Assembly (NCBI RefSeq): GCF_030538285.1
Contig: NZ_JAUNUG010000034.1
Coordinates: 1 to 33,757, forward strand
Direction of reading: 5' to 3'
Length of the DNA stretch: 33,757 nt
From: Corynebacterium sp.
GTDB lineage: Bacteria; Actinomycetota; Actinomycetes; Mycobacteriales; Mycobacteriaceae
Each line of letters begins with the position of its first letter. Positions within the stretch are counted from its first letter, which is position 1. The notes under the pieces are model-generated. The model did no database searches. It saw only the letters and a program-made list of their open reading frames with translations, and was not told the origin of the DNA. This document shows positions 3,707 to 21,579 of the stretch, piece by piece. Made by a program: the position numbers and the translations under genes.

Positions 3707-4326
3707 TGCTTCTCCCCCAGCACCTCGGCCGACAGGCTCGGATGCGATTCCATCCTGGCCAGCCCGTTCCAGCACAGGTTGACGATGTGCGCCGCGACGA
3801 CCTCCTTCGCCGGCTGGCGCTCATCCAGCCACCACTGCGCAGTCATGGACACCATGCCCACCAGCGCCTGGCCGTAGAGGATCGCCACCTCCGGATCCAG
3901 GCCCTGGTTCTCAAAGGAACGGCCCAGAATATGCGACACCTGCCCCACCGCGGTGTTGAGCAGTGTCGCATAGGACTGGTCCTGCCCCGGCACCAGATCC
4001 CGCACGAGGATGAGGAAACCATCGGTCTCCTCCTCCACATAGGTGAGCAGGGCGATGACAGCCTGCTCGATGCGTACCTTCGACCGGCCCTGCGACAGCG
4101 CCTGGGTGATGATCTGCTCCAGGCGGATCATCTCCCGGTCGACGACGACGGCGTACAGCCCTTCCTTACCCCCGAAGTGTTCGTAGACGACCGGCTTGGA
4201 CACCGCGGCACGCGCCGCGATCTCCTCCACACTGGCACCCTCGAAACCCCGCTCAGCGAACACCTCACGGCCAATCGAAATGAGCTGTTCCCGACGTTCC
4301 TTGCCCGTCATGCGCTGTCGAACCAT
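3703..4326 (-). CDS. TetR-family transcriptional regulator
   Basis: This is a protein of about 207 residues with a TetR N-terminal helix-turn-helix: a helix [21 protein letters not shown], then [25 protein letters not shown], the recognition-helix signature of the family. The all-helical C-terminal part would bind the ligand and dimerise; its effector cannot be read from sequence. The gene ends in the start region of mfd (overlap GTGA), so the two are probably cotranscribed, which makes an effect on mfd expression possible. ATG at 4326 was preferred to GTG at 4332 and ATG at 4311; no strong ribosome site separates them, and a leaderless transcript is plausible. Confidence 0.88.
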
Positions 4327-4352
4327 GCCCACCAGCCTATCCCGAGCCGGTG

Positions 4353-4382
4353 TTTAGTCCACAGCCGCGGGTCAGGTACGCT
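4353..4382 (+). promoter_or_regulatory. Probable promoter of tRNA-Gln
   Basis: A -35-like TTTAGT (4353-4358) is followed after 18 bases by a -10-like TACGCT (4377-4382). Transcription would start about 5 bases before the mature tRNA. The match to the corynebacterial -10 pattern is moderate. Confidence 0.4.
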
Positions 4383-4393
4383 TATCTACGCCT

Positions 4394-4465
4394 TTCCCCG
4401 TGGTGTAATTGGCAACACTCTGGTTTTTGGTACCAGCTTTCCAGGTTCGAGTCCTGGCGGGGAAG
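4394..4465 (+). tRNA. tRNA-Gln (anticodon TTG)
   Basis: A complete 72-base cloverleaf is visible: acceptor TTCCCCG/CGGGGAA, D stem GTGT/ACAC, anticodon stem CTGGT/ACCAG with loop TTTTGGT (anticodon TTG, reading CAA), T stem CCAGG/CCTGG around TTCGAGT, and discriminator G. CCA is not encoded. Its 3' part is the attachment site of the prophage remnant that follows, and it has been kept intact by the integrated copy. Confidence 0.96.
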
Positions 4466-4467
4466 CT
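4451..4467 (+). repeat. Attachment repeat attL in the tRNA-Gln 3' end
   Basis: The 17 bases GTCCTGGCGGGGAAGCT cover the 3' T-stem and acceptor strand of tRNA-Gln plus two bases beyond. An exact direct copy lies at 7158-7174. Tyrosine integrases commonly use the 3' half of tRNA genes this way. Confidence 0.88.
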
Positions 4468-4477
4468 TTCGTCACAC

Positions 4478-4516
4478 CCCCTGTGACCTGCTGCGCGGCA
4501 GGTCACTGGGGTTTTT
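4478..4516 (+). terminator. Intrinsic terminator after tRNA-Gln
   Basis: A 9-bp perfect stem GTGACCTGC/GCAGGTCAC (4483-4491, 4498-4506) is extended by CCCC/GGGG and followed by five T (4512-4516). It lies inside the attachment repeats, so the present tRNA terminator appears to have arrived with the phage. Confidence 0.85.
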
Positions 4517-4803
4517 CCATGTTCTCCCCACCGTGACGGAAGTAGCGTAAAAGAGTGGGAAAGAGTCTCTAGTGTCGTGGAATTATCGGAGGTTTTCCGC
4601 CCCTGAAACGCGGGAAATCTTCCCATGCCGTAGTGCAGGTTCACAGCGCAAGCGGATATAAATCGCTCTCCACGTAGCGACCGCGGATCGTCGCCAGCAC
4701 CAAACGATACTTGCGCTGGACGCGGTCCGCCTCCAACTGCATGGTGGCATCTCCAGGCTTATAGTCTCCATCCCCGGTTGCTCAAAAGCTCAACGAGATC
4801 TGG
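4517..4803. other. Non-coding left end of the prophage remnant
   Basis: No convincing gene is present in these 287 bases. On the minus strand an open frame from 4781 to a stop at 4641 encodes about 46 codons; from its only ATG (4742) it reads MQLEADRVQRKYRLVLATIR and then GRYVESDLYPLAL. The composition is protein-like, so it may be the C-terminal scrap of a lost phage gene, but no family is recognised. The toxin reading frame is open upstream only to the stop at 4762-4764. Confidence 0.4.
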
Positions 4804-5469
4804 ATGAACAACGTCGGCGTGACATTGCATCCCAGCTGGGGAGCGGCCCGCCAGCGAGCGGAATGGAGGAAACTGATCGTTCATCTTCGCCGTGAAAAGA
4901 CGGGTAGCGACGATCCGGTGCGGTTCCCGCCGATCCCGGGCTTGGAGCTGCCGAAGTACTCCTACTTTGCCAATAGGAGCATCTTCGGCCAGGTCGAACC
5001 TCTGCCACCGTTGGACACCCGCGCGGCCGGCCACATCCTCTTCGGGTGGACCGACAGGAACCCGCTGCCTCCACTGGGCGACTCACCCGTCGATCACGGA
5101 AGGGAGGCGCACACCAGGTCGGACCGGAAGGGCCACCGCTGGGGATCCGAGAGATCAGGAGCGACGGTGTTCCCGGAGCATTGGAGTGATCAGAAGATCA
5201 TGGACGCTGTCCGTGACACCATTGACGACCCGGATGAGTACCGGCCCGCGAAAGTGGGCCAGGCCAAGCGCGTCGTCAGGAAGGACGTTGATGGCGTCCT
5301 CATCCATGCGGAATGGGTCATCCTCCCTGGAAAAGCACCTCGCCTCATCACCGCCTATCCTCAGCGAGGCGAAGGCGTTATGGAAGTTGGACCCGATGGT
5401 AAACTTGGGCAGGTAAGCAGCCCACATCGTAACGATAAGAAGTTCGTTGACGTGTTCTACTCGAGATAG
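4804..5469 (+). CDS. EndoU-type nuclease toxin, probable C-terminal remnant of a phage MuF-like head protein
   Basis: The 221-residue protein has a bacterial EndoU fold signature at about residues 72-187. It contains AAGHILFG (His77), KGHRWG (His111), the segment FPEHWSDQKIMDAVRDTIDDP (123-143), and LITAYP (181-186, Thr183). Two His plus a Lys/Thr region form the EndoU RNase active site, so all core elements appear present. Family members cleave RNA and occur as toxic tips of polymorphic toxins. About 70 residues precede the domain, with no secretion signal or head-morphogenesis domain. Because an immunity-like gene, a scaffold gene and a capsid gene follow, I infer the toxic tip of a MuF-type minor head protein that lost its N-terminal part. 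The frame is open upstream to 4765; ATG 4804 has only a weak ribosome site, so expression is uncertain. Confidence 0.78.
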   Translation: MNNVGVTLHPSWGAARQRAEWRKLIVHLRREKTGSDDPVRFPPIPGLELPKYSYFANRSIFGQVEPLPPLDTRAAGHILFGWTDRNPLPPLGDSPVDHGREAHTRSDRKGHRWGSERSGATVFPEHWSDQKIMDAVRDTIDDPDEYRPAKVGQAKRVVRKDVDGVLIHAEWVILPGKAPRLITAYPQRGEGVMEVGPDGKLGQVSSPHRNDKKFVDVFYSR

Positions 5470-5772
5470 GTGGTGGCCAAATTGGGAGCGATCGAAGACG
5501 AGTATCAGTTTTTCGACGACTTCATCAACCAATACGGCACTGCCCTTCGGTCTGCCTCCGATGATTACAGCTTGCTGGTTGACGCCCCCGGAGCGCAGGG
5601 CGAATTCGAATCAGCCCTGTTCAGTGCAATCACGATAGCCGCGTCCGAAGATGTATTGATCGACAAGAGCACATTGGAGAGCGTCTTGAACTACCTCGGA
5701 GACGGCGACCTCGGACACTATGCACGACAGTGCGCCGAAACGATCCGAACTGGCAGCGTACCCACCGCCTAG
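5470..5772 (+). CDS. Probable immunity protein for the EndoU toxin
   Basis: This is a small acidic protein of about 100 residues, predicted mostly helical (for example SALFSAITIAASEDVLIDK and SVLNYLGDGDLGHYARQCAE), with no signal peptide or membrane segment. Its GTG start (5470, or 5473) directly follows the toxin stop codon, so the two are translationally coupled. I do not recognise its family by sequence. The immunity role rests on position, size and charge: polymorphic-toxin immunity genes typically sit immediately downstream of the toxin domain. A terminator hairpin follows, making the pair a closed unit. Confidence 0.68.
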   Translation: MVAKLGAIEDEYQFFDDFINQYGTALRSASDDYSLLVDAPGAQGEFESALFSAITIAASEDVLIDKSTLESVLNYLGDGDLGHYARQCAETIRTGSVPTA

Positions 5773-5796
5773 TTCAGCACCCCTCGACTCTCTACA

Positions 5797-5832
5797 GCCC
5801 GGCCCCACCATCTGGTGGCGTGCCGGGCTTTT
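5797..5832 (+). terminator. Intrinsic terminator after the toxin-immunity pair
   Basis: The outer stem GCCCGGC/GCCGGGC (5797-5803, 5822-5828) encloses an inner stem CCACCA/TGGTGG (5805-5810, 5813-5818), followed by TTTT (5829-5832). Confidence 0.8.
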
Positions 5833-5836
5833 GCAT

Positions 5837-5919
5837 GGAAGGCAAGGCCATGGTGGCCAGCTGGTCTCGAAAGCCGGCGACGCAGTGATCTACGTGGGGT
5901 TCGACTCCTCTGTCTTCCG
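5837..5919 (+). tRNA. tRNA-Ser-like sequence (anticodon CGA) in the phage remnant
   Basis: These 83 bases can fold as a class II tRNA. The acceptor GGAAGGC/GTCTTCC pairs fully with one G-T; GGCC/GGCC forms a D stem with a very short loop; CTGGT/GCCGG encloses the loop CTCGAAA (anticodon CGA); a 17-base variable region follows; and TGGGG/CCTCT closes the loop TTCGACT with one T-T mismatch. The discriminator is G. The short D loop, weak variable arm and mismatch suggest a decaying or tRNA-like element rather than a normal serine tRNA. It lies between the immunity and scaffold genes and is unlikely to be a chromosomal housekeeping copy. Confidence 0.5.
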
Positions 5920-5989
5920 CTGACCCCCGCATTCTCACCCAGGTGGTGGCGGGGTTGTGTCATAACCGCATGTGTTTCCAGGAGGAACA

Positions 5990-6518
5990 ATGTCTGAACC
6001 CACCACAGAGCCCGCCACCACTACCCCCGCCAAAACCCCTGAAACCCCCCGAGGCCACAGCGGGTACCGGTGCCGGGGAGGCCGAGGGCAAGAAGGACGT
6101 GACGGTCGAGCAGCTCCAGGCTGAGCTGGACAAGACCCGTCGCGAGGCCGCCCGGTACCGCACCGAGCGCAACCAGTACAAGCCCCTGGCGCAGAAGTAC
6201 CAGGAGGCGGAGGACGCGAACAAGACCGAAGCGCAGAAGGCCGCCGAACGGATCGCCGCCCTGGAGGCGGAGAACCAGCAGATGGCCCTTGCCTCGAAAC
6301 GCGCTGAGCTCGTCGCCGACAGTGGTGTGCCCGTCGAACTGCTTCGCGGCAGCACCGTCGAGGAGCTCACCGAGCACGCCGCAGCACTCAAGGAAGCGTT
6401 CGCACAGGCCTCCACCAACAACACTCCTCCCGCAGATGTGGTCGTCGCCGGCGAGAACTCCGGTGGCGCCCCACTGCAGGAGGCTGATTGGCTGCGCAAG
6501 CAGCTTCTCGGCAAGTAA
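5990..6518 (+). pseudogene. Phage capsid scaffold protein, frameshifted
   Basis: ATG 5990 follows a good ribosome site (AGGAGGAACA) and reads MSEPTTEPATTTPAKTPET. The frame then breaks at a run of six C (6045-6050); dropping one C restores a product of about 175 residues. The body contains an acidic proline/threonine-rich start, a long coiled coil (VEQLQAELDKTRREAARYRT to RIAALEAENQQMALASKRAE) and a C-terminal tail ending WLRKQLLGK. Small coiled-coil proteins immediately before the major capsid gene are typical siphophage scaffolds. The shift could be real decay or a homopolymer sequencing error. Confidence 0.75.
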
Positions 6519-6566
6519 CCCCGAACACCAACCTGACCCCTACTGGGTCGAGAAAGAAAGTCAACC

Positions 6567-7118
6567 ATGGCTTTTGACAACATTGTCGGGCGCGCAGATC
6601 TCACTGACGCGATGCTGCCCGGCCAGGTCATCACCACCATCCTCAAGGAAGCCCCCTCGTCCTCGGTCATCCTGGAACGCGCTCGCCGCGTCCCGATGTC
6701 TTCAGCCAAGACCAAGCAGCCGGTCCTTGCGTCCCTGCCCGAGGCCTACTGGGTGGAAGGAGACACTGGTCTGAAGCAGACCACGGAATCCACGTGGGAG
6801 AACGTCACCATGACCGCCGAGGAGCTCGCCGTCATCGTCCCGATCCCCGACGCCCTGGTAGCGGACTCCGACGTCCCCCTGTGGGACGAGATCCGCCCGC
6901 TGCTTGTCGAAGCGATCGGCAAGAAGGTCGACCAGGCAGCCCTGTTCGGCGTCGACAAGCCCTCCTCCTGGCCGACCGCCGTCGTCCCCGCAGCGATCGC
7001 CGCGGAGAACGTCACCGCCCGGGGCACTGCTGCGGCCGTAGTAGAAGGGGCGATAGTGCAGTCTCCGGGGAAGAGCACGTGGTGCGACGGGGCGGTGCTG
7101 CGATCTTGTCAGAATTAG
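6567..7118 (+). pseudogene. HK97-type major capsid protein, 3'-truncated
   Basis: The first 155 or so residues (MAFDNIVGRADLTDAMLPGQ, then ITTILKEAPSSSVILERARRVPMSS, PVLASLPEAYWVEGDTG, KQTTESTWENVTMTAEELAVI and IPDALVADSDVPLWDEIRPL) match the N-terminal half of actinophage HK97-fold capsid proteins, which are usually about 300 residues or more. After GTAA near 7035 the reading continues into about 27 unrelated residues and stops at 7118, so a deletion fused the gene to the phage DNA next to attR. No working capsid can be made. The start follows a GAAAGAAAG ribosome site. Confidence 0.85.
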
Positions 7119-7157
7119 TCTTCGATTCCGACTCAGAATCAGAGGTCTACTGGCCAG

Positions 7158-7174
7158 GTCCTGGCGGGGAAGCT
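7158..7174 (+). repeat. Attachment repeat attR
   Basis: An exact copy of the 17-base repeat at 4451-4467. Its last two bases (7173-7174) are part of the complement of the tctA stop codon (7173-7175), so the prophage ends inside the stop codon of its neighbour. Confidence 0.87.
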
Positions 7175-8723
7175 ACACATGGAGGGCGGTGTCGTCGACG
7201 GCGACATCGTCCTTCTTCCGTGAGTTGGCCATGATGTGGCGGACATGCTGGACGGCACTGACCGCCAGGGCGATGGCCAGCACACCGTAGATGACCATGG
7301 TGAACGGGCTGGACACGAGGATGGACGGATCCCCTTCGGACACCGCGAGCGCGCGGCGCAGTTCGGTCTCCGCCAGAGGGCCGAGGACCACGGCGATGAG
7401 AACCGGGGCGACGGGGATGTTGTAGCGACGCATCATGAAGCCGAGCAGTCCCAGTCCCAACACCAGCCACAGGTCGAACGTGGAGGAGCTGATGGCGTAC
7501 ACGCCGAGCATCGACAGGATGGTGATGCCGGCGTAGAGGTAGTGGCGCGGGATGTTGAGCAGCTTGGCCCACATCGGTGCAAAGGACCAGTTGAGGATGA
7601 GCAGCACCACCAGGCCGATGAACAGTGACGCCAACAGTGCCCAGACCATGTCTCCGCTGCGCTCGAAGAGGAGCGGGCCGGGCTGCATACCGTACTGCTG
7701 GAAGGCGGCGAGCATGATGGCCGCGGTGGCGGAGGTCGGCAGTCCGAGAGCCAGCAGCGCACCCATGGCGGTACCGGCCGTGGCGTTGCCTGCCGCCTCC
7801 GGGGCGGCCAGTCCCTTGATGGATCCGGTGGTACCGAATTCGGTGTCGCCGGCCCGCTTGGCCAGTCGCTTCTCTGTGCCGTAGGCCAGGAAGGTCGGCA
7901 CCTCGGAGCCGCCGGCCGGGATCAGGCCGAAAGGCGCACCGAAGGCTGTGCCGCGCAGCCAGGCCGGGGCGGCCGCCCGGAAGTCCTTGACGCTGAGTCG
8001 AGCAAAGCCCTTGGGCTGGATCTGGATGGGGCTCTCCTCCCGGTGGATGCGGGAGGACACGCGCAGCACTTCGCCGAGGGCCAGCAGTCCGACGGTGATG
8101 ACGATGATGGAGATACCGTCGAAAAGCTCAGGCGAACCGAACGTGAAGCGGGAGGTGCCACTGGGTCCGTCGATGCCGACCAGGACCAGTGCCAGGCCGA
8201 TCGCCAGGGCCGCGAGCCCGCGGAACACCGATTCGGCGACGACCGCTGAGATCGCCAAGAACGCGCCGACGGCAAGTGCGAAGTATTCGGCGGGGCCGAA
8301 AAGGGTGGCCAGGCGGACCAGGGTCGGGGCGAAGAACACCACCAGGGAGGTGGCGATCAGGCCACCGGTGAAGGCACCCAGAGCTGCGGTGGCCAGAGCT
8401 TTCGCCGCCTGGCCGTTCTTCGCCATTCTGTGCCCCTCAAAAGTGGAGGCGATAGCTGAGGAGTTTCCGGGGGTGTTGAGCAGGATGCCGGCGGTTGAGT
8501 CACCGAACAGTCCACCGAAGTAGACACCGGCGAACATGATGAAGGCGCCGGTGGCGTCGAGAGAAAACGTGATGGGCAAAAGTAGGGCAACAGCCATGGC
8601 GGATCCGAGTCCAGGGAGGACACCGACCGCCGTTCCAAGCAGTGCCCCGAGGAACACCCACAACAGGTTCGCGGGGGTGATGGCATTGGCGAAGCCATCG
8701 AATAACAATGAGAGCTGGTCCAT
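7173..8723 (-). CDS. tctA: Tripartite tricarboxylate transporter, large membrane subunit TctA
   Basis: A 516-residue polytopic membrane protein with about 12 hydrophobic segments. The family signature is clear: LPGLGSAMAVALLLP near residue 40 and GVYFGGLFGDSTAGILLNTP followed by GNSSAIASTFEGHRMAKNGQ at about 65-105. A repeated half, EAAGNATAGTAMGALLALGLP, lies near residue 310. TctA forms the channel of TTT transporters, which take up carboxylates delivered by the TctC binding protein using an ion gradient. The start overlaps the tctB stop (ATGA), so the genes are coupled. The stop codon overlaps the prophage attR site, and the C-terminal tail (RKKDDVAVDDTALHV) is therefore written up to the insertion boundary. 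Confidence 0.94.
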   Translation of the reverse strand: MDQLSLLFDGFANAITPANLLWVFLGALLGTAVGVLPGLGSAMAVALLLPITFSLDATGAFIMFAGVYFGGLFGDSTAGILLNTPGNSSAIASTFEGHRMAKNGQAAKALATAALGAFTGGLIATSLVVFFAPTLVRLATLFGPAEYFALAVGAFLAISAVVAESVFRGLAALAIGLALVLVGIDGPSGTSRFTFGSPELFDGISIIVITVGLLALGEVLRVSSRIHREESPIQIQPKGFARLSVKDFRAAAPAWLRGTAFGAPFGLIPAGGSEVPTFLAYGTEKRLAKRAGDTEFGTTGSIKGLAAPEAAGNATAGTAMGALLALGLPTSATAAIMLAAFQQYGMQPGPLLFERSGDMVWALLASLFIGLVVLLILNWSFAPMWAKLLNIPRHYLYAGITILSMLGVYAISSSTFDLWLVLGLGLLGFMMRRYNIPVAPVLIAVVLGPLAETELRRALAVSEGDPSILVSSPFTMVIYGVLAIALAVSAVQHVRHIMANSRKKDDVAVDDTALHV

Positions 8724-12878: not shown

Positions 12879-15800
12879 CTATTTCCTCCGGCGCACCACC
12901 AACAGCGCTCCCAGCCCGGCCAGGACCAGGGCCACAATCACCAAGCCGATGACACTCGCACCAGTGTTAGCCAGCGGGCTGGACTTGACCGGCTTGCCCG
13001 GCTGGGCGGGTGCCTGCTTGCCCGGCTCGCCCTTCTCCGGGACCAGCTTCGTATCGGGCACGTCCTTGGTGTCCGGGACGTCCGGGGTGTCCTGCGCGGG
13101 GATCTCCACCTCGGGAGCCGGAACCGGGGTAACCGGGGTCGGCACCGAGGAACCATCAGACACCGAGGATCCGGCGATGGAGGATCCGATCAGACCGCCG
13201 ATAATCAGCGGGATGAGGATCGACCCATCCGAGGATCCCGGGGTGACCGGCGGCGGGGTGGCCGGGTTGTGGAACCCGAAGTCCAAGCCGTGACGCTCGC
13301 CTCCCTCGGCGAGGAGGAAGTCGTAGGCCAGGGCACCGGTGGCCGGGCCGTCCGGGTCGGCGGTCTGCTGCCACCCGGCGGACGGGCTCACCTGGACGGT
13401 GTAGGTCCCGCCTTCCAGGACGGTGAACTCATAGTTACCGCCGAGATCGGTCGTGGTGGTGTCCACGATCGCACCGGTCTCATCGATGAGGTCCACCACC
13501 CAGCGGTGCAGCCCCGGCTCACCGGAGTCGAGGAGCCCGTTGTTGTTCTGGTCATCCCACAGGGTGCCGGAGACGTTGCCGTTCGGGGTGAACTTGCGGA
13601 AACCGAAGTCCTGATCGGTGACCTCCTTACCGGCCACGACGGTGACGTTAGAGGTGAGTAGCAGTCCGTCCGGGCCAGAGGACTGGACGTAGCCGGCCGG
13701 GTGGACGATCTCGATGGTGTAGTCACCGACGGGAACGTTGGTGAAGGAGAAGCTGCCGTCATCACCGGTGAGTACGGTCGCGATGACCGCACCGGTGGCG
13801 TCTGTGAGCTCAACCGCCACACCCGGGATACCCAGTCCGGTGCCCTCATCGAAGACGGAGCCGCTGACGGCGCCGACCTCGGTATCGAATCCGAAGTTCT
13901 GGTTCTCCACGGTCTCCCCCTCCTCGACCTGGATGGTCGATTCGAGGGTCGGGGTGTCGATTCCCTCGGGATCAGCGACGAGTTCCCAGTTCTCCGGGGT
14001 CTCCGCCACGCGGACGGTGTACTCACCGGCGGGCAGGTCGGTGAAGGAGTAGGAACCGTCCTCTCCCGTGGTGACGGTGGCGACCTGGGCGCCGGTGGCG
14101 TCGATAAGCTCGACCTCCACGCCCGGGATGCCGTTCTCATCGCCGTCGACGACGCCGTCACGGTTGGCGTCATGCCAGATGACGCCGGTGACGTTGCCGA
14201 GGGTGGTGGCGAAACCGAAGTTCTGCGCATCCGTCGTCTCACCCGCGGTGACACTCACCGCGGAGATGAGCTCCGGGTCCTCGATACCGGAAGGATCAGC
14301 GACGAGCTTCATATTCTCCGGCACCGTGAGCACGCGGACGAAGTAGTCGCCGGCGGGCACGTCGTCGAAGGTGTAGTTGCCGTCGGCATCGGTGGTGGCG
14401 ATATTGCCGATGCGGTTGCCCGCGGCGTCGATAAGCTCCAGCTCGAGGCCCTCGAGGCGCTGCTCGCCCTCGTCGATGGCGCCATCCCTATTGACGTCGT
14501 TCCACAAGGTGCCGGTCACCGCACCCGCGGCCTCTCGGGTGAGGGTGACGGTGGAGGTGGCGCTGACCTCGCCGACCGTGGCCTCGTTGGTCCAGACCTC
14601 GGTCTCCTGCTCATCCTTGGTGAGGGTGACGGTGTAGTCGATGGTCCGCGGCAGGTCGGCGACGCTCAGCTCGACCTCATCGCGGACGATGTCCTCCTTG
14701 CCTTCGCTGCGCAGCACATCTTCCAGGGTCCCCTCGGTGCCGCTGTCGGCGGCCTCATCGTGGGTGACTTCAACGTCGTCATCGCTGCCGGTGGCGGTGG
14801 TGGCGCCGACGGTGGCGGTGATTTCGATGGCCTCGAGGGCCTCCTTGATCTCGCTTTCCGACGCCCCGGTGATCTCCACCTCGCAGGTGAAGCCGACGGT
14901 GATTTCCTCGCCGGCACCGAGCTTCTCGACGGGGTCGCCATCGATCACACACGTTTCCGGTTCGAAGGTGATCTCGCCGAGGGTGACTTCACGCTGCTCG
15001 GGGTTGGTGAGCGTGAGCGTACCGGTGATCTTGGTGGCCAGCGGGCGGATGGTCTCCTCAGCGTCGACGGTCACCTGGTAGGTGATCTCCTGCTCCGCTC
15101 CCGGGCGTAGGGTGGCGGCCGTCGGATCGGCGGTCTTGGTGATCTCCCACTCATACGCCTTGGCGTAGGTGGCGGCAGCCTCGACGTCAATGTCCAACTC
15201 AATGGGCTTGAGGGGGAACACTGCAGCGTCGATGTTGGCTGGCGTGTTGTCGTTGTCACCGCCGATGGTGAATGACGGGGTGCGGACGGTGGCGTCGGAC
15301 CCGTCTGCGGAGCCGGCGTCGGTGACTCCCGGCTCGCCGATGCGGTTGCCGTCGGTGTTGACCTGCGGGGAGAAGCCGTGGCCCTCCGGGGCGTCGAACT
15401 CGACGTAGTAGGTGCCGGTATCGACGCCGCCGAAGTTGAACAGGCCGTTGGTGGTGGTCACGGAGGCGATCTCCTCACCGACGTCGTTCATGAGGCGGAC
15501 GGTGACCTCACCGTTGAACATCGGCTTGCCACCCAGGTCGGTACCGGTGCGCTCCTCATCGAGGAAGATGTGCCCGGAGATACCGGCGTTGCAGAACTGA
15601 TCCGAGGTGGTCACACCCGCCGGAAGTTGATCGACGTGGGCCTGGTCGCCGACAGCGGCCAGCTGAGCGGTGTTGAGCACGGAGACACAGCGGTTCGGCA
15701 TAATGCGCACACCATCGCCGTCCCAGGTGAGATCCCAGGTGTAGGCCTGGGTTCCGTCCTGCCAGGTGTATTCCCGGGTCTCATCGGTGGCATTCGGGTC

Positions 15801-18800
15801 GGAGACCACAACAGCCTCATTGAAGGGAATTTCCGTACCGCTGACGTCCACCGTGCCGCTGATCGCCGGTTGGCCAGAGGCATCAACCCGGGTGACCTCC
15901 CAGGTGAGAGTGTCAGTGAGATCCTCGGTGTAGGTATCCGGAACGTCACAGGTGACCGCGAACTGGCTGCTGCCCTGCGGATCGATCTGCGCGTTCTCGC
16001 CACCAATGACGGTGCAGGCGCCGAAGGCAGCCGAGGTGGCGGTGACGTTGACCAGCATCGGGGAGATGCCGGCCGCATCCGGGTTATCCACCGTGATCAC
16101 AGCGGTGTAGCTGTGGTTGGCCTGGGTGGCCGGGGTCTCGGTGGTGGTGATGCGGTAGTCGATGCTCACACCCCTATCGCTCGTGCCCTCCAGCGGCACC
16201 GTCTGCGCGGAGACGGTCTCCTTGGTGATGTCCCAGCCGTAGATGCGGTCGAAGGTGCCCTCGACTTCTGCCTCCGGGATTGCGGCACCGGAAGCACAGA
16301 GGGTGTGGGTGGCCTCATCGGTGGCAAGGACGTCATCACCCGAGGTCAGCTCGACCCGGTTCTTGTACGGGTCGCACTGACCTGCAGTCGGGGTGAGAGC
16401 ATCCGAGGTGTAGGTGAACTCCTGGACACCCTCAGCTGCCGTAGCCGTCCCGATGGTCTCCGGCTCACCGTCGTTGAAGATGTCTACAACATCGACGCTG
16501 GCGTTGGTGTCGCCTGTCGGATCGTGGCTGATCGTTGCCTCGGTGACGTTGCCGGTGGACTGGGCCACGGGGGTGCCCGTACCAGCCTGGATGGCGGTGG
16601 CCGTCAGGGTGATGTCCTTGAGCGCTGCCTCCATGTCGGCGACCGTGGTCTGGCCGTCAAGCACCGGACCGGTGCAGGTGACCTCCACGGTGGCGGTGCC
16701 GTTGGCGGGGACAGTGACATCCTCGCTGGTGGCCGGCTCACAGGTCAGGTCTGCGGCGTTAACCTGCAGGTTGGTGACCGTGGCGGCGGTGGCCTCGTTG
16801 TTGGTGAGCGTCACCGTCGCGGTGAACTTCGCCGACTCCGGCACCGGCGCCAAGGTCGGGCCCTGCGGGGTGGCGGTGATGGTGAACTCCGGGGCAGCAG
16901 TCTGGTCCGCCGGGATCTCGTCCCGCTCCTTTTCGGCGGTCTTGCTTACCTCCCAGGTGTATGCCTCTGTGTAGCTGGCTGTAGCCTTTGCCTCCACGCT
17001 GAGGGTCACCGGGTTGAGCGGGCGGAAACCGAAGTCCTGGTCCACATTGACCATGTTCTCCGGAGTCAGCGAAACCACCGGCAAGGTCATGTCATGCCCC
17101 ACGGGAACATAGGTGATGTTGTCATTGGAAGGATCAGTGACACGGACCTGGTAGGCACCGGGCAGCAGGTTGCTGAACAGGTACTTGCCGTCATCGTCGG
17201 TGGTGGTGGTGGAGATCAGCTCGCCATCGGCGTCGAGAAGCTCAACCGTGATGTTCGGGATCCCGGCTTTGGTCTCGTCGTCGATGAACACGGTGTCGCC
17301 GATCTCACCGATGCCGCGCAAGCCGAGGTCCTGGTCCAGTTGGGAGGAACGACCCTGGATGGTGATGGGCGCGGGAGTCGCCCCGACCGAATCATCACCC
17401 TCTGTCGGCGCATAGCCGGCGGGCACATCGAAGCGCACCTGGTAGGTACCCGGCAGAAGACCGGTGAAGGAGTACCTGCCATCCTCGTCGGTCGTGGTCG
17501 TGGAGATCTCCTCGCCGGTGGCGTCGAGAAGCCTCACGGTGATGCCTTCCATCGGCTCTTCGTCTTCATCGATGACACCATTGCCGTTGGTGTCCACCCA
17601 CACGAAATCACCGATGGTGGACGGCCCTGTGACACCGAAATTGATCTCGGCGACGTTTTGATCCCCCACCGTGATGGCGGTGACATTCGGGGTGCCAGTC
17701 CCGTCAGGATCGAAGGTGTTGACCCATTCGCCTTCGGGCAGGGTGGCGGGGTCCAAGGAGACGGTGTAGTTGCCCTGCGCAACACCGCTTAAGACATAGT
17801 TACCCTCATCATCAGTGACGGCGGTAATCGGATCACCATAACGATCGAGGATGGGCTCGCCGGTCTTGGCGTCGAGAAGCGACACGGTGACTCCACGAAG
17901 GCGATCCTCCGAGTCGCCGATATTGCCCTCACCGGACACATCATCCCAAATGGTGCCCGTCACGTTAACGCCAACGGTGATGCACGCTTGCGCATCACTG
18001 TCACCGCGGTTGAGGTCCGCGGTTGTCAGGGTGACGTTGTTACAGATCGTCTGCCCCTCGGTGCCTTCCTTGATCTTGGTGACAATGTTGAGGCGGGCGG
18101 CCGTCGGTTCCGGCAGTTCACCTGGCGGTGTGGGCTCGGCCTCGACAGAATCGCCGGCCGTGGCCTCCACATCGACTGCCGTGGAACCGTCGGTGTACTG
18201 GTTATTGGCAGGGCGAAGCGGTTGGTCCAGGTTCCAACTGCCGGTGTTCTGATCAAACGTGCTGGTGCCCGTGCCGGTGCTCACCCATGTTTCGGCATCA
18301 TCGTAATAGCCGTACTCCACGGTGGAACTGACGTACTCCACCCCGGCGGGCAGCTCATCAGCGATGAACACATCGGTGGCCCAACCAGGACCATGGTTCA
18401 GAGCCTCGATATTCCACGCGACTTCATCACCCGGACGGTACACGCCCTCAGAGTCAGTCACCTTCGACAAATCAACCTCAACCGGGACCGCCAGACCGAC
18501 CTTCGCCGGCTCCACCGGGAGGAGGGGCACCTCATTCACGGCGTTCTTACCGGTTACTGCGAAGGAGTTCCAGGCGATACCTCCCCGGCCTTCCTCGGCT
18601 GTGATCTCCAGATTCGCGGACCAGGTGTCACCAGGCTGCAATTGCGCATCACCGAAGACAACCTTGACGGCCTTGACGTTGAGTCGACCTATCGCATTCA
18701 GGTTGGTATTCCAGTCATCGGCGCAACCGTCATTGTCCGGAAACACCTCTGGTCGACACGGATTAGATGACGCCGAGTAAGAAATCGTGGCACCTGGGAT

Positions 18801-21323
18801 GGCCTGGACAGCCTTCGCCAAAGTGGACGACCATGCGGAACCGCGCTGCTGATCATTAACCAGTACGCCGGTGTCGCCGACATGCGGGAGAATGTCATAG
18901 AGGACGATGTCCTTGATAGCTACAGAACCTGAGTTGTAGAGGTCAAGGCGGTACTGGGCGTTCTCGCCGCCATCAACAACGCCAATTTCCGGGGCCGCAT
19001 GGAAGCGATCATCCGGAGGGGAGCCCTTGACCCATTTCGTGCCGTCAATAGAGGCCTGTTCGACAACGGTGATCTTGTCCTGCTCACCACAGCCGAACAT
19101 CTTGCCTTCACCGCCGTACACGGACCCATAGATGCCTGCCCGGTCATCATCAGCGTTGAACTCAGTGGTCTGCGCCGTTGTTGTGCAGTGAGTCTTGGCC
19201 GCAAAGGGATCGTTACGGTTGGGAATCAGCTTGTCGAAGGCATAAATGTCATTGGTGTAGCTGCCAGCCGGCAGACCCCGTTCGGCCTCGATATCGAAGG
19301 TGAGGGCCACGTTAAGTCTCGTGAGGCGGGGGAAGAAGTACTCATCAGGCCAGGAGACCCGGACCAGCTGGCGGCCAGTGTTATTGAAGTTGTCGATAAC
19401 TTCCACGTCCGCTTCATCCTGCGGGACGTAGCGATTGTTCTGGAACGTAAACGTATCCGGAACATAGGTGAAACCTTCCGGAAGAAGCTCGGTAATGACT
19501 GGGCGGACATCCTTGGGAGAGGAAGCATGGACACTGAAGTCTCCCCGCAGGGTCGACTGTCCACCGGGGTTGATGAAGAGCTCATTCTTGGTGACGCTAT
19601 ATATTGGCGCATCGGGGTTCACACGGATGTAGCCACAACGCGAATTTGTCCCTGCATCAGCTCCGCCGGGACCTACGACACGCTCGTTGTCGTGGTACAG
19701 GCCGGAGTCTTCGCTCACGCAGTTCTCCAACCACATTCCCCGGGTGGCGTATTCGCGCAGGTTAGAGGGCTGATCGCCGTTGAGGATCGGGCTCTGGTAC
19801 CTGAATCCCTCCGGCCTTTCGAGAGGGAACTCATCCACGACGGTGCCGTGCACGGTCAGGGAGTAAGTGGATCCTGCCGGGATGCTACCTGTGACGTAGA
19901 AGGAGGTGATCGTCTCGTCGGGCTCCAGCGAAGGGGTGAAAACCACGGAACGGGACCCGTTGAGGCTGAAGTCCTCGCTACCGTTGGAAACACCGGTGGT
20001 GGTCTCCCAGCGGAGGGTGTACTCGCCCCAGGAGAGCGCAGACCAGGTAAATTGATTGACCTTCATCGCGGGGGTGTCGCACCCCGGCCCCTCCGGAGAG
20101 GTGAGCATGCAGGGCAAGTGGTCGTTCAATCGGACGTCGAGAGGCACGGAAGAGGTATTCGAACCATTGAAACCGAAGTAGGCCCCGTTCACCGTGCCGC
20201 GGTTGGTGTTGCGGTTATGCGCGGAGCCGTATCCCTTGCTGAAGGAGCCGCCGTAAGCGCCTGAGTCACCCACCGGGGTAGCAACATCAGATTCAGAGGC
20301 CGTGACTTCCACATCCTCCGCGAACAACGGGTGCGCAGTGGCGTTGACGGTGTTCTCGATCGGTTCACCGGCGGGGAACTTATCGGCGGGGTAGCGGACA
20401 GTGAGGTAGTGGAAAGGCGGAACACCCGATGCGTTGTCTCCCTTGGCACCCCACGTCCCGTCGGCCCGCTGAATCGCGTAATCAAACGGCGGCCACGTCA
20501 CAGTGTGTGTTTCGGAATCATATTCACCACCACCGGTCGCAGAAACGAATTCCGCGCCCTCGGGCAGGGTGTCGGTGAGCGTGACATTCATGAGGTTCCA
20601 GAGACCGTCACGCCTTTCCCCACTGAGGTTGTACGGGCCGAGCTGCCCGTTACCGCCGCGTCCGGTCGAAGGGGTGAAATGTCGCCTGTCGCCAGCCCAC
20701 ACGGAGTACGTCACCTCGGATCCGACCAACGGATCTGCCAACGCGTTGGCACGGCGCTTATCCGCAACCAGGTCATACTGGGAACGCACGATGACGGGAT
20801 TAGCGGCGTTATCGGCCACCACGGTGTCGGAGTTGGTCGACTCAGCGGTCGCTGTGAGCACAAACTCAGACTCATTGGGAACCGTGCCCGCCGGGGTCTG
20901 GATACGGTAGAACAGCGAACCGGAGGAGCCCGCCGGCAGCGGGTTGTTCATCGTCCACGTCATAATGCGGGTCCGCGCGTTGAAGACCGGCTGCCCGGAG
21001 AACCCACCAGAAGAGGCCACACCCGTCGGGGTACCACCCACAAAGATGTCCGGGTAGTCGACGAATTCGGGGATCGGCGCGGTGATCACCACCCCATCGC
21101 AGTTGGTGTTCGGCGTAGAACACGCCCAGCGGATTTCAAACTGGGCGATCTCTGTCGCACTGATTGACGGGGTCGCTGGTTGCACGTCAAGGGTAATCTG
21201 CCCCTTGTCCTGTGCCTGAGCGGAGTCATTCGCCCAGACGAGACCGGAAAGTACCAGGATGACGACGGTGAGCAGCGAGATGATCCGGGCGGCTGTCGAT
21301 TTCAGCAGCGGTGGAGCAGACAT
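12879..21323 (-). CDS. Giant cell-wall-anchored surface protein with SdrD-B-like repeats and LAxTG sorting signal
   Basis: About 2814 residues. ATG 21323 was chosen for AAAGGA upstream and because it starts a clean signal peptide (MSAPPLLKSTAARIISLLTV, cleavage near SAQAQD). Residues about 40-1100 are DUF11-like beta domains. SdrD-B-like modules begin near residues 1118, 1234, 1338, 1913, 2266, 2376, 2481 and 2581; several carry D-x-N-x-DG-x-x-D calcium-loop motifs (for example DVNRDGAIDEGE). Three related modules begin near 1446, 1688 and 2048 (AYTWEVSKTA, IYGWDITKET, AYEWEITKTA). A proline-rich wall-spanning stretch leads to SPLANTG, a hydrophobic helix and RRRK: a class E sortase LAxTG signal. 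It probably acts as an adhesin or stalk on the cell surface. No sortase or pilin gene is nearby. Preceding 256 bases show no clear promoter. Confidence 0.93.
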   Translation of the reverse strand: MSAPPLLKSTAARIISLLTVVILVLSGLVWANDSAQAQDKGQITLDVQPATPSISATEIAQFEIRWACSTPNTNCDGVVITAPIPEFVDYPDIFVGGTPTGVASSGGFSGQPVFNARTRIMTWTMNNPLPAGSSGSLFYRIQTPAGTVPNESEFVLTATAESTNSDTVVADNAANPVIVRSQYDLVADKRRANALADPLVGSEVTYSVWAGDRRHFTPSTGRGGNGQLGPYNLSGERRDGLWNLMNVTLTDTLPEGAEFVSATGGGEYDSETHTVTWPPFDYAIQRADGTWGAKGDNASGVPPFHYLTVRYPADKFPAGEPIENTVNATAHPLFAEDVEVTASESDVATPVGDSGAYGGSFSKGYGSAHNRNTNRGTVNGAYFGFNGSNTSSVPLDVRLNDHLPCMLTSPEGPGCDTPAMKVNQFTWSALSWGEYTLRWETTTGVSNGSEDFSLNGSRSVVFTPSLEPDETITSFYVTGSIPAGSTYSLTVHGTVVDEFPLERPEGFRYQSPILNGDQPSNLREYATRGMWLENCVSEDSGLYHDNERVVGPGGADAGTNSRCGYIRVNPDAPIYSVTKNELFINPGGQSTLRGDFSVHASSPKDVRPVITELLPEGFTYVPDTFTFQNNRYVPQDEADVEVIDNFNNTGRQLVRVSWPDEYFFPRLTRLNVALTFDIEAERGLPAGSYTNDIYAFDKLIPNRNDPFAAKTHCTTTAQTTEFNADDDRAGIYGSVYGGEGKMFGCGEQDKITVVEQASIDGTKWVKGSPPDDRFHAAPEIGVVDGGENAQYRLDLYNSGSVAIKDIVLYDILPHVGDTGVLVNDQQRGSAWSSTLAKAVQAIPGATISYSASSNPCRPEVFPDNDGCADDWNTNLNAIGRLNVKAVKVVFGDAQLQPGDTWSANLEITAEEGRGGIAWNSFAVTGKNAVNEVPLLPVEPAKVGLAVPVEVDLSKVTDSEGVYRPGDEVAWNIEALNHGPGWATDVFIADELPAGVEYVSSTVEYGYYDDAETWVSTGTGTSTFDQNTGSWNLDQPLRPANNQYTDGSTAVDVEATAGDSVEAEPTPPGELPEPTAARLNIVTKIKEGTEGQTICNNVTLTTADLNRGDSDAQACITVGVNVTGTIWDDVSGEGNIGDSEDRLRGVTVSLLDAKTGEPILDRYGDPITAVTDDEGNYVLSGVAQGNYTVSLDPATLPEGEWVNTFDPDGTGTPNVTAITVGDQNVAEINFGVTGPSTIGDFVWVDTNGNGVIDEDEEPMEGITVRLLDATGEEISTTTTDEDGRYSFTGLLPGTYQVRFDVPAGYAPTEGDDSVGATPAPITIQGRSSQLDQDLGLRGIGEIGDTVFIDDETKAGIPNITVELLDADGELISTTTTDDDGKYLFSNLLPGAYQVRVTDPSNDNITYVPVGHDMTLPVVSLTPENMVNVDQDFGFRPLNPVTLSVEAKATASYTEAYTWEVSKTAEKERDEIPADQTAAPEFTITATPQGPTLAPVPESAKFTATVTLTNNEATAATVTNLQVNAADLTCEPATSEDVTVPANGTATVEVTCTGPVLDGQTTVADMEAALKDITLTATAIQAGTGTPVAQSTGNVTEATISHDPTGDTNASVDVVDIFNDGEPETIGTATAAEGVQEFTYTSDALTPTAGQCDPYKNRVELTSGDDVLATDEATHTLCASGAAIPEAEVEGTFDRIYGWDITKETVSAQTVPLEGTSDRGVSIDYRITTTETPATQANHSYTAVITVDNPDAAGISPMLVNVTATSAAFGACTVIGGENAQIDPQGSSQFAVTCDVPDTYTEDLTDTLTWEVTRVDASGQPAISGTVDVSGTEIPFNEAVVVSDPNATDETREYTWQDGTQAYTWDLTWDGDGVRIMPNRCVSVLNTAQLAAVGDQAHVDQLPAGVTTSDQFCNAGISGHIFLDEERTGTDLGGKPMFNGEVTVRLMNDVGEEIASVTTTNGLFNFGGVDTGTYYVEFDAPEGHGFSPQVNTDGNRIGEPGVTDAGSADGSDATVRTPSFTIGGDNDNTPANIDAAVFPLKPIELDIDVEAAATYAKAYEWEITKTADPTAATLRPGAEQEITYQVTVDAEETIRPLATKITGTLTLTNPEQREVTLGEITFEPETCVIDGDPVEKLGAGEEITVGFTCEVEITGASESEIKEALEAIEITATVGATTATGSDDDVEVTHDEAADSGTEGTLEDVLRSEGKEDIVRDEVELSVADLPRTIDYTVTLTKDEQETEVWTNEATVGEVSATSTVTLTREAAGAVTGTLWNDVNRDGAIDEGEQRLEGLELELIDAAGNRIGNIATTDADGNYTFDDVPAGDYFVRVLTVPENMKLVADPSGIEDPELISAVSVTAGETTDAQNFGFATTLGNVTGVIWHDANRDGVVDGDENGIPGVEVELIDATGAQVATVTTGEDGSYSFTDLPAGEYTVRVAETPENWELVADPEGIDTPTLESTIQVEEGETVENQNFGFDTEVGAVSGSVFDEGTGLGIPGVAVELTDATGAVIATVLTGDDGSFSFTNVPVGDYTIEIVHPAGYVQSSGPDGLLLTSNVTVVAGKEVTDQDFGFRKFTPNGNVSGTLWDDQNNNGLLDSGEPGLHRWVVDLIDETGAIVDTTTTDLGGNYEFTVLEGGTYTVQVSPSAGWQQTADPDGPATGALAYDFLLAEGGERHGLDFGFHNPATPPPVTPGSSDGSILIPLIIGGLIGSSIAGSSVSDGSSVPTPVTPVPAPEVEIPAQDTPDVPDTKDVPDTKLVPEKGEPGKQAPAQPGKPVKSSPLANTGASVIGLVIVALVLAGLGALLVVRRRK

Positions 21324-21579
21324 GGAAATTCCTTTTTGCCTGTGCTCGAACCCCATACCAGCCATCAATCCCTGTCAGAATGGCCGCTTTACACGACAGT
21401 GACGCCCTTCAGGGGACTGACACAGCAGATACAGGTAGTTAACGGACCAAATTTAACAGGCCCCCAGATAAAAGGTGTAGCCACAAGCGATCCGCGGACG
21501 CACATCACACTTCACCCGCATAAACACCAGGTCATTCGGCAGTCAAGCACCCTCACCCCCTCAGGCAGCACTACCCCCG

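What the first reader, a model, noticed from the sequence alone, without database searches (positions are those of the whole stretch)
4804..5832. EndoU toxin and immunity gene surviving in a phage head-gene relic
The order toxin domain, small coupled gene, scaffold and capsid matches MuF-type polymorphic toxins of temperate phages, where the toxin is the C-terminal tip of a minor head protein. Here the head-protein part is gone but the EndoU motifs (His77, His111, ITAYP) and the probable immunity frame are intact, while the structural genes around them have decayed. Either the pair is selectively kept (for example immunity against related phages) or the loss is recent. The immunity candidate has no family I recognise.
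Basis: partly seen in the sequence, partly recalled or inferred. Interest (0 to 1): 0.75.

Follow-up and report, generated by a model that had tools for sequence, protein, structure and literature searches.

The report
Prophage scrap with toxin, immunity, tRNA-like RNA
A small leftover of a bacterial virus still carries the cutting domain of a virus-borne RNA-cutting toxin, its probable protective gene and a tRNA-shaped element; the leftover is ordinary, but the tRNA-shaped element, which recurs behind such protective genes in related prophages, may be undescribed.

Summary
Window 4804-5469 is a bacterial EndoU domain (PF14436 above cut-off); 5470-5772 belongs to a divergent family that follows EndoU in related phages. 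Intact relatives exist: in phages Poushou and Dogfish, contig L030 and 12 of 13 IMG/VR loci EndoU is the C-terminal part of a VG15/MuF head protein, with a small gene behind it. Here only 4787-7027 aligns with L030. It lies in a 2.7-kb insertion between two copies of the last 17 bp of tRNA-Gln; a relative shows the empty site. Decay looks recent: the larger scaffold piece and the capsid piece keep dN/dS 0.085 and 0.045, so open frames need no selection, though this is not proof. Toxin and immunity are far more diverged (dS 1.7-1.9) than scaffold and capsid (0.33-0.40), as in exchanged cassettes. Two extensions: immunity homologues occur without a toxin (7 of 27 matches); and a tRNA-like element, full-length at 5837-5920 and often shrunk to acceptor stem plus T-arm elsewhere, recurs behind immunity genes, also with ART and CdiA_C toxins. 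Rfam did not report it.

The parts
4394..4466 (+). tRNA-Gln(TTG), left attachment site; the 17-bp core is 4451-4467
   Evidence: ARAGORN, Rfam tRNA 56.7 bits; 17-mer at 4451 and 7158
4468..4786 (.). 319 bp of unknown origin between the att core and the phage fragment
   Evidence: no phage DNA match; in the cut list no match to another genome reaches beyond query base 131 (window 4524); minus-frame peptides without convincing relatives
4787..5469 (+). EndoU end of a VG15/MuF-EndoU head protein; the head part is missing; possible start ATG 4804
   Evidence: PF14436; DNA homology to L030 begins at 4787; 76% identical protein in L030
5470..5772 (+). putative immunity gene, 100 aa, predicted five-helix bundle
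   Evidence: homologous to the gene behind MuF-EndoU in L030 (43% identity); family profile E 1e-17; AlphaFold mean pLDDT 87
5811..5827 (+). terminator-like hairpin between immunity gene and tRNA-like element
   Evidence: pattern scan only; 3 sites found in 4380-7200 against a mean of 2.0 in shuffles
5837..5920 (+). tRNA-Ser(CGA)-like RNA element, long form
   Evidence: ARAGORN; same place in L027 and L030; cloverleaf fold, z -1.63, 12 of 200 shuffles as good; missed by Rfam, by model R1 and by my strict scan
5990..6518 (+). scaffold gene; its opening codons and the rest lie in different frames
   Evidence: 88% DNA identity to L030 over 5762-7027; translation and profile hit
6567..7027 (+). 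first part of the major capsid gene, truncated; the open frame runs on to 7118 in unrelated sequence
   Evidence: PF05065; homology to L030 ends at 7027
7028..7157 (.). 130 bp of unknown origin before the right att core
   Evidence: outside the alignable region; read in six frames, not searched by profile (one search failed)
7158..7174 (+). right att core, second copy of the tRNA-Gln 3' end
   Evidence: exact 17-mer; in relative L086 tetR, tRNA-Gln and tctA (recalled labels) follow each other without the insertion

Best explanation
A temperate phage of the Poushou/L030 kind integrated into the 3' end of tRNA-Gln and was then reduced by deletions to 2.7 kb. What is left is the toxin-immunity cassette (EndoU tip, immunity gene, tRNA-like element) plus scaffold and part of the capsid gene. 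In an intact phage the MuF-EndoU protein would sit in the head, enter a new cell with the DNA and cut RNA there (tRNA by analogy with CDI EndoU toxins), while the small partner protects the lysogen. Here the head part is gone, so delivery cannot work; the immunity protein could still act if expressed. Shown: homology, gene order, att repeats, empty site, truncation, cassette-like divergence. Inferred: RNase activity, packaging, neutralisation, expression.
For: EndoU profile. Fused relatives: VG15 PF25310 plus EndoU in L004 and L027 over the VG15 cut-off, in L028 just under it; 12 of 13 IMG/VR loci have MuF and EndoU in one frame, in the thirteenth (L109) the frames are split. Homology limits 4787 and 7027. 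17-bp repeat and empty site. dS 1.67 and 1.92 (near saturation) for toxin and immunity against 0.33 and 0.40 for the larger scaffold piece and the capsid piece; identity jumps behind the partner gene. EndoU-Imm distances correlate (rho 0.68, 21 loci that I chose; partial on MuF 0.40, p 0.002, 15 loci; MuF-Imm alone 0.59).
Against: Toxin activity and immunity are untested. EndoU profile scores are weak: the three fused relatives tested fall below the PF14436 cut-off, and the EndoU model has no significant fold match (best E 0.15, a CDI complex; BrnT also listed). The immunity model has no significant fold match. The genome is a draft in 94 contigs with 6.73% contamination, so an assembly fault at the two junctions cannot be excluded. 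No integrase was recognised, but the right end was not searched by profile. In L086 about 160 bp separate tRNA-Gln from the alignable part of tctA, whereas here the right core touches the tctA stop.
Confidence: 0.88

Rival explanations
1. The pair, or at least the immunity gene, is kept by selection as protection against related phages that inject EndoU.
For: Orphan immunity genes: 7 of 27 matches, in 4 of 20 matching genomes, without any EndoU hit in the genome, at two sites shared between species, once three in tandem, in two genomes beside a CRISPR-like array; dN/dS 0.31 between the G054 and G126 copies (7 synonymous, 8 other changes). In 17 of 40 fetched EndoU loci the EndoU frame has no MuF part; 8 of these 17 have an immunity profile hit and the other 9 an open small frame of 79-114 aa starting within 120 nt, while only 3 of 17 keep a near-complete EndoU domain (at least 140 of 169 positions).
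Against: For this window recent decay explains the open frames. Short frames survive longer by chance; the 9 small frames had no chance control, and two of the 8 profile hits are partial (L061, L070). One orphan copy has a stop (G126:C27). The profile A5 behind the 7 of 27 was built with four of the orphans among its 12 rows, and the EndoU search scored at most 14 candidates a genome.
Confidence: 0.3
2. The 2.7-kb piece is a small mobile cassette in its own right (att-flanked, moved by a helper integrase), not a leftover.
For: It has att repeats at both ends and carries one complete cassette.
Against: No second near-identical copy appeared in 201 genomes of the genus (next best EndoU match 53% identical); it holds part of a capsid gene and a broken scaffold gene, which a cassette would not need.
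Confidence: 0.04
3. Assembly chimera of a phage contig and a chromosome.
For: Draft genome, contamination 6.73%.
Against: Both att repeats and the empty-site comparison fit a real insertion.
Confidence: 0.06

Closest known systems
MuF polymorphic toxins of temperate phages (Jamet et al. 2017, PMC5576092)
   Same: Toxin as C-terminal part of a head protein, small downstream gene, packaging module; the paper names EndoU_bacteria among MuF toxin domains (passages)
   Different: Here the head part is lost; the relatives' head domain is Pfam VG15; a tRNA-like element follows the immunity gene, which the passages I saw do not mention
Corynebacterium phage Poushou head module (L027)
   Same: Terminase, portal, MuF-EndoU, small gene, tRNA-Ser(CGA)-like element, scaffold, capsid
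   Different: Intact phage; toxin 33% identical over 68% of the query
CdiA-CT STECO31 / EndoU CDI toxins
   Same: EndoU RNase domain with partner immunity protein (passages of PMC9086364)
   Different: Delivered by CDI, not by a phage head; my EndoU profile matched no PDB sequence
MafB/MafI of Neisseria
   Same: Toxin with a small immunity gene (EndoU type recalled); one MuF module is homologous to a Maf module (PMC5576092 passage)
   Different: No NCBIfam match of the immunity protein and no MafI among its 15 listed fold matches

Membership tests
MuF polymorphic toxin | N-terminal MuF-type head domain in the same protein | tested here: not met
   Absent in the window, where homology starts at 4787 after that domain; present in intact relatives
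MuF polymorphic toxin | C-terminal toxin domain | tested here: met
   PF14436
MuF polymorphic toxin | Small gene (<150 aa) directly downstream | tested here: met
   5470-5772, 100 aa
MuF polymorphic toxin | Toxic to a cell that lacks the immunity protein | not testable with these tools
   needs expression
Bacterial EndoU nuclease | Profile match over the curated cut-off | tested here: met
   27.7 bits against 25.3
Bacterial EndoU nuclease | Catalytic histidines | tested here: met
   H77 and H111 invariant in 24 sequences; that they are the catalytic ones is inferred from the His-His-Lys triad described for STECO31 (PMC9086364 passage)
Bacterial EndoU nuclease | Third catalytic residue (Lys) | tested here: inconclusive
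   no Lys among the invariant or nearly invariant columns
Prophage remnant | att repeats and empty site in a relative | tested here: met
Prophage remnant | Integrase | tested here: inconclusive
   none recognised in the left piece; the right piece was only read in six frames
Immunity protein | Homologues sit beside the toxin | tested here: inconclusive
   20 of 27 matches near an EndoU match or fragment, 7 of 27 without
tRNA gene | Recognised by tRNA models | tested here: inconclusive
   ARAGORN yes, Rfam RF00005 no at gathering threshold

The most novel reading that the evidence does not exclude
Corynebacterial MuF phages carry an undescribed class of minimal tRNA-like RNA: acceptor stem plus T-arm plus a linker that usually contains GG, perhaps derived from a tRNA-Ser-like ancestor (full-length in the window). 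It marks the 3' end of toxin-immunity cassettes, its 5' strand in places overlapping the last codons of the immunity gene. It may serve as an RNase P/Z processing mark that separates the toxin-immunity message from the scaffold-capsid message, and as a homology boundary at which cassettes with EndoU, ART or CdiA_C toxins are exchanged.
Probability: 0.55. Interest if true: 0.75.

Novelty: new variant of a known kind. Interest (0 to 1): 0.55.

Why it matters
The relic supports the view that actinobacterial phages arm their heads with exchangeable RNase tips, and gives an example of how such a cassette decays. The orphan immunity genes offer a direct test of whether bacteria keep immunity genes to resist phage-injected toxins. 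The tRNA-like element, if processed, would be a new way to divide a phage structural message and a marker for finding toxin cassettes whose toxin and immunity families are unknown.

Tried and rejected
Looked for P0002 in phages by tblastn (none) and for P0001 and P0002 as single proteins in viral contigs (none confirmed). The 319-bp left piece and the 62-aa and 46-aa minus-strand frames in it gave no convincing relatives. That the partner is a known named immunity family was dropped for want of a match. That the tRNA-like element is a decoy for a tRNA-cutting toxin is weakened because it also follows ART-type cassettes. That it is only an att site is disfavoured by the variety of matching pairs in its acceptor stem. 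Model R1 in 219 genomes of the order gave one match, in a place without a hit to my MuF-phage profiles, so the element as modelled looks confined to the genus. Muddy and Dogfish lack it by the strict scan. The small immunity orphans showed no R1 match of their own (the hits in L114 and L117 are tRNA-Met).

Full report
What is there. Window 4804-5469 encodes a bacterial EndoU domain (PF14436, 27.7 bits, cut-off 25.3; one match in the genome). The gene behind it, 5470-5772, has no convincing family in Pfam, NCBIfam or PHROGs. After it come a tRNA-Ser(CGA)-like element (5837-5920), a scaffold gene in two frames and the first part of a major capsid gene (PF05065).

Intact relatives. A protein search in phages found ten records, seven of them of Corynebacterium phages. 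Poushou and Dogfish have terminase, portal, a minor capsid protein with EndoU, a small gene, scaffold and capsid (the Dogfish scaffold by my profile). The head part matches Pfam VG15 (PF25310) in L004 and L027 over its cut-off and in L028 just below it. The best relative is L030 (a 7-kb contig of a metagenome bin labelled Propionibacteriaceae): MuF part and EndoU in one frame, a 98-aa homologue of the partner, the tRNA-like element, scaffold and capsid. In IMG/VR 13 loci were confirmed. MuF and EndoU share a frame in 12 of 13 and are split by frame changes in one (L109); all 13 have a small frame behind EndoU; my scaffold profile hits 12 of 13, my capsid profile 6 of 13, my immunity profile 8 of 13.

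Boundaries. DNA homology to L030 starts at 4787 and stops at 7027. Outside it lie 319 and 130 bp of unknown origin, then two exact copies of the last 17 bp of tRNA-Gln at 4451-4467 and 7158-7174. In genome G061 (L086) the flanking genes meet at tRNA-Gln without the insertion (the names mfd, tetR and tctA are recalled labels). There about 160 bp separate tRNA-Gln from the alignable part of tctA, while in the window the right core touches the tctA stop. The best reading is a prophage that entered at tRNA-Gln and was cut down to 2.7 kb. The genus is not named by the tools; Corynebacterium is inferred from the hosts of the related phages.

Age and selection. Against L030, synonymous divergence is 1.67 for EndoU and 1.92 for the partner (both near saturation), but 0.33 for the larger scaffold piece and 0.40 for capsid. 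Identity in 90-base steps is 59-84% over EndoU, 43-60% over most of the partner gene and 78-99% from 5911 to 6990. This is the pattern of a cassette exchanged, or diverging faster, than its surroundings. The damaged genes still show dN/dS of 0.085 (scaffold, 144 codons) and 0.045 (capsid, 152 codons); against this, the first 16 scaffold codons have half a synonymous and 4.5 other changes, ratio 3.6. So most divergence predates the decay. In a neutral simulation both frames stay open in 27-64% of runs at 0.5-1% divergence, 8-20% at 1.8% and 2-9% at 2.8%; 1.8 and 2.8% are the capsid and scaffold dN, upper limits for the neutral time. Recent loss is therefore enough; selection is not excluded.

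How common such relics are. A protein search found EndoU relatives in 32 of 201 genomes of the genus, 42 matches. The 41 matches outside the window lie in 40 regions, all fetched. In these 40, EndoU shares a frame with at least 110 of 196 MuF profile positions in 19 (one of them, L055, with a broken EndoU), with fewer in 4, with none in 17. Of the 17, 3 keep a near-complete EndoU domain; 8 have an immunity profile hit (two partial: L061, L070) and the other 9 an open small frame of 79-114 aa starting within 120 nt downstream. The 9 had no chance control.

The partner as immunity protein. EndoU and partner distances correlate (Spearman 0.68, 21 loci chosen by me) and still do after removing MuF distance (0.40, p 0.002, 15 loci); MuF and partner also correlate (0.59). 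The predicted structure is a five-helix bundle (mean pLDDT 87) with no significant match to solved or viral structures. The EndoU model is poorer (pLDDT 72); its listed PDB matches include CDI toxin complexes and BrnT but none is significant. By profile A5, in which 4 of 12 rows are orphans found earlier, the partner family has 27 matches in 20 of 242 genomes. By eye, 20 of 27 lie near an EndoU match or fragment; the other 7, in 4 genomes (G054, G076, G079, G126), lie in genomes without any EndoU match, with at most 14 candidates scored per genome. The broader profile A1, without orphans, gave 39 matches in 29 of 201 genomes; 9 of the 39 (E 7e-8 to 3e-3) lie away from EndoU, and of the four orphan genomes it found only G076; a single-protein search with P0002 had found G054, G076, G126 and G058 weakly. 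The orphans are closest to the partner gene of L098, which stands behind an intact MuF-EndoU (dN 0.28 to the G054 copy). They sit at two sites shared between species, three in tandem in G076, and in G054 and G126 between tRNA-Met and a 61-nt-period CRISPR-like array.

The tRNA-like element. Behind the immunity gene many related loci have either a full tRNA-Ser-like fold (window, L027, L030, L105) or a short form: acceptor stem, linker that usually contains GG, T-arm with a loop such as TTCGANT. A scan that I wrote after seeing these sequences found it in 20 of 36 hand-picked regions. In the controlled run I dropped L100 (same as L046), L057, L064 and L078 (no hits): 19 of 32 against 0.21 expected from shuffles, and 19 of 3046 windows elsewhere in the same loci. 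Counting ARAGORN (window, L105) and model R1 (L044, L058) it is 23 of 32. The window's own copy failed the strict scan and R1; its fold is only moderately better than shuffles (z -1.63). The acceptor pairs vary while staying paired: up to four Watson-Crick types at one position over 21 of 22 elements (L105 fell out by its coordinates). Pairing was a condition of choice for most of these, the variety was not. Model R1, built from 8 short forms, matched 25 places in 19 of 201 genomes. Within about 1.5 kb on the same strand 12 of 25 have EndoU, 7 more have MuF or scaffold hits, 6 have none of my profiles; the 6 have upstream frames that by eye resemble immunity genes of the other loci. Toxin domains at such places include CdiA_C (L136, L140) and ADP-ribosyltransferase (L045; below cut-off in L062). 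Some loci seem to hold two elements: L056 (R1 E 9e-10, and a strict-scan hit), less surely L053 (second R1 match E 0.14) and L082 (R1 E 0.011, the other by eye). Apart from tRNA-Gln, Rfam gave no gathering match in 4300-7300, and none in 11 further loci. Two literature searches (12 of 26 and 8 of 187 papers listed) showed no paper on such an element. The processing and boundary roles are inference.

Literature seen: passages of PMC5576092, PMC3482391, PMC9086364, PMC12700104, PMC10654092; search listings with abstract starts.

Verdict. What is worth following is the tRNA-like element and the orphan immunity genes.

Noticed in passing
window 5837-5920: tRNA-Ser(CGA)-like element behind the immunity gene; short acceptor-plus-T-arm versions occur at the same place in related prophages.
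   Followed up: yes
L113 5964-7035, L117 6517-6807, L114 6103-6390, L119, L120: Orphan immunity homologues in genomes without an EndoU match, in tandem (L113) or next to a CRISPR-like array (L114, L117).
   Followed up: partly
L062 6832-10257, L045 10228-12455, L056, L053: Arrays of toxin and immunity pieces: EndoU and ART-type pieces side by side, in some with a tRNA-like element behind each.
   Followed up: partly
L061 4770-10520: Head genes appear twice in tandem (portal, MuF, scaffold, then portal, MuF, EndoU, immunity, scaffold), several in broken frames.
   Followed up: no
L046, L050, L061, L106 (end of the immunity gene): In these four the last codons of the immunity gene (SVA, SAA, SVA, EAM) also form the 5' acceptor strand of the tRNA-like element.
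   Followed up: partly
window 4483-4506: Terminator-like hairpin (10 pairs, T-run) right behind tRNA-Gln inside the insertion.
   Followed up: no
window 12879-21368 (-): A 2829-aa open frame, perhaps a fatty acid synthase (recalled guess, not searched).
   Followed up: no
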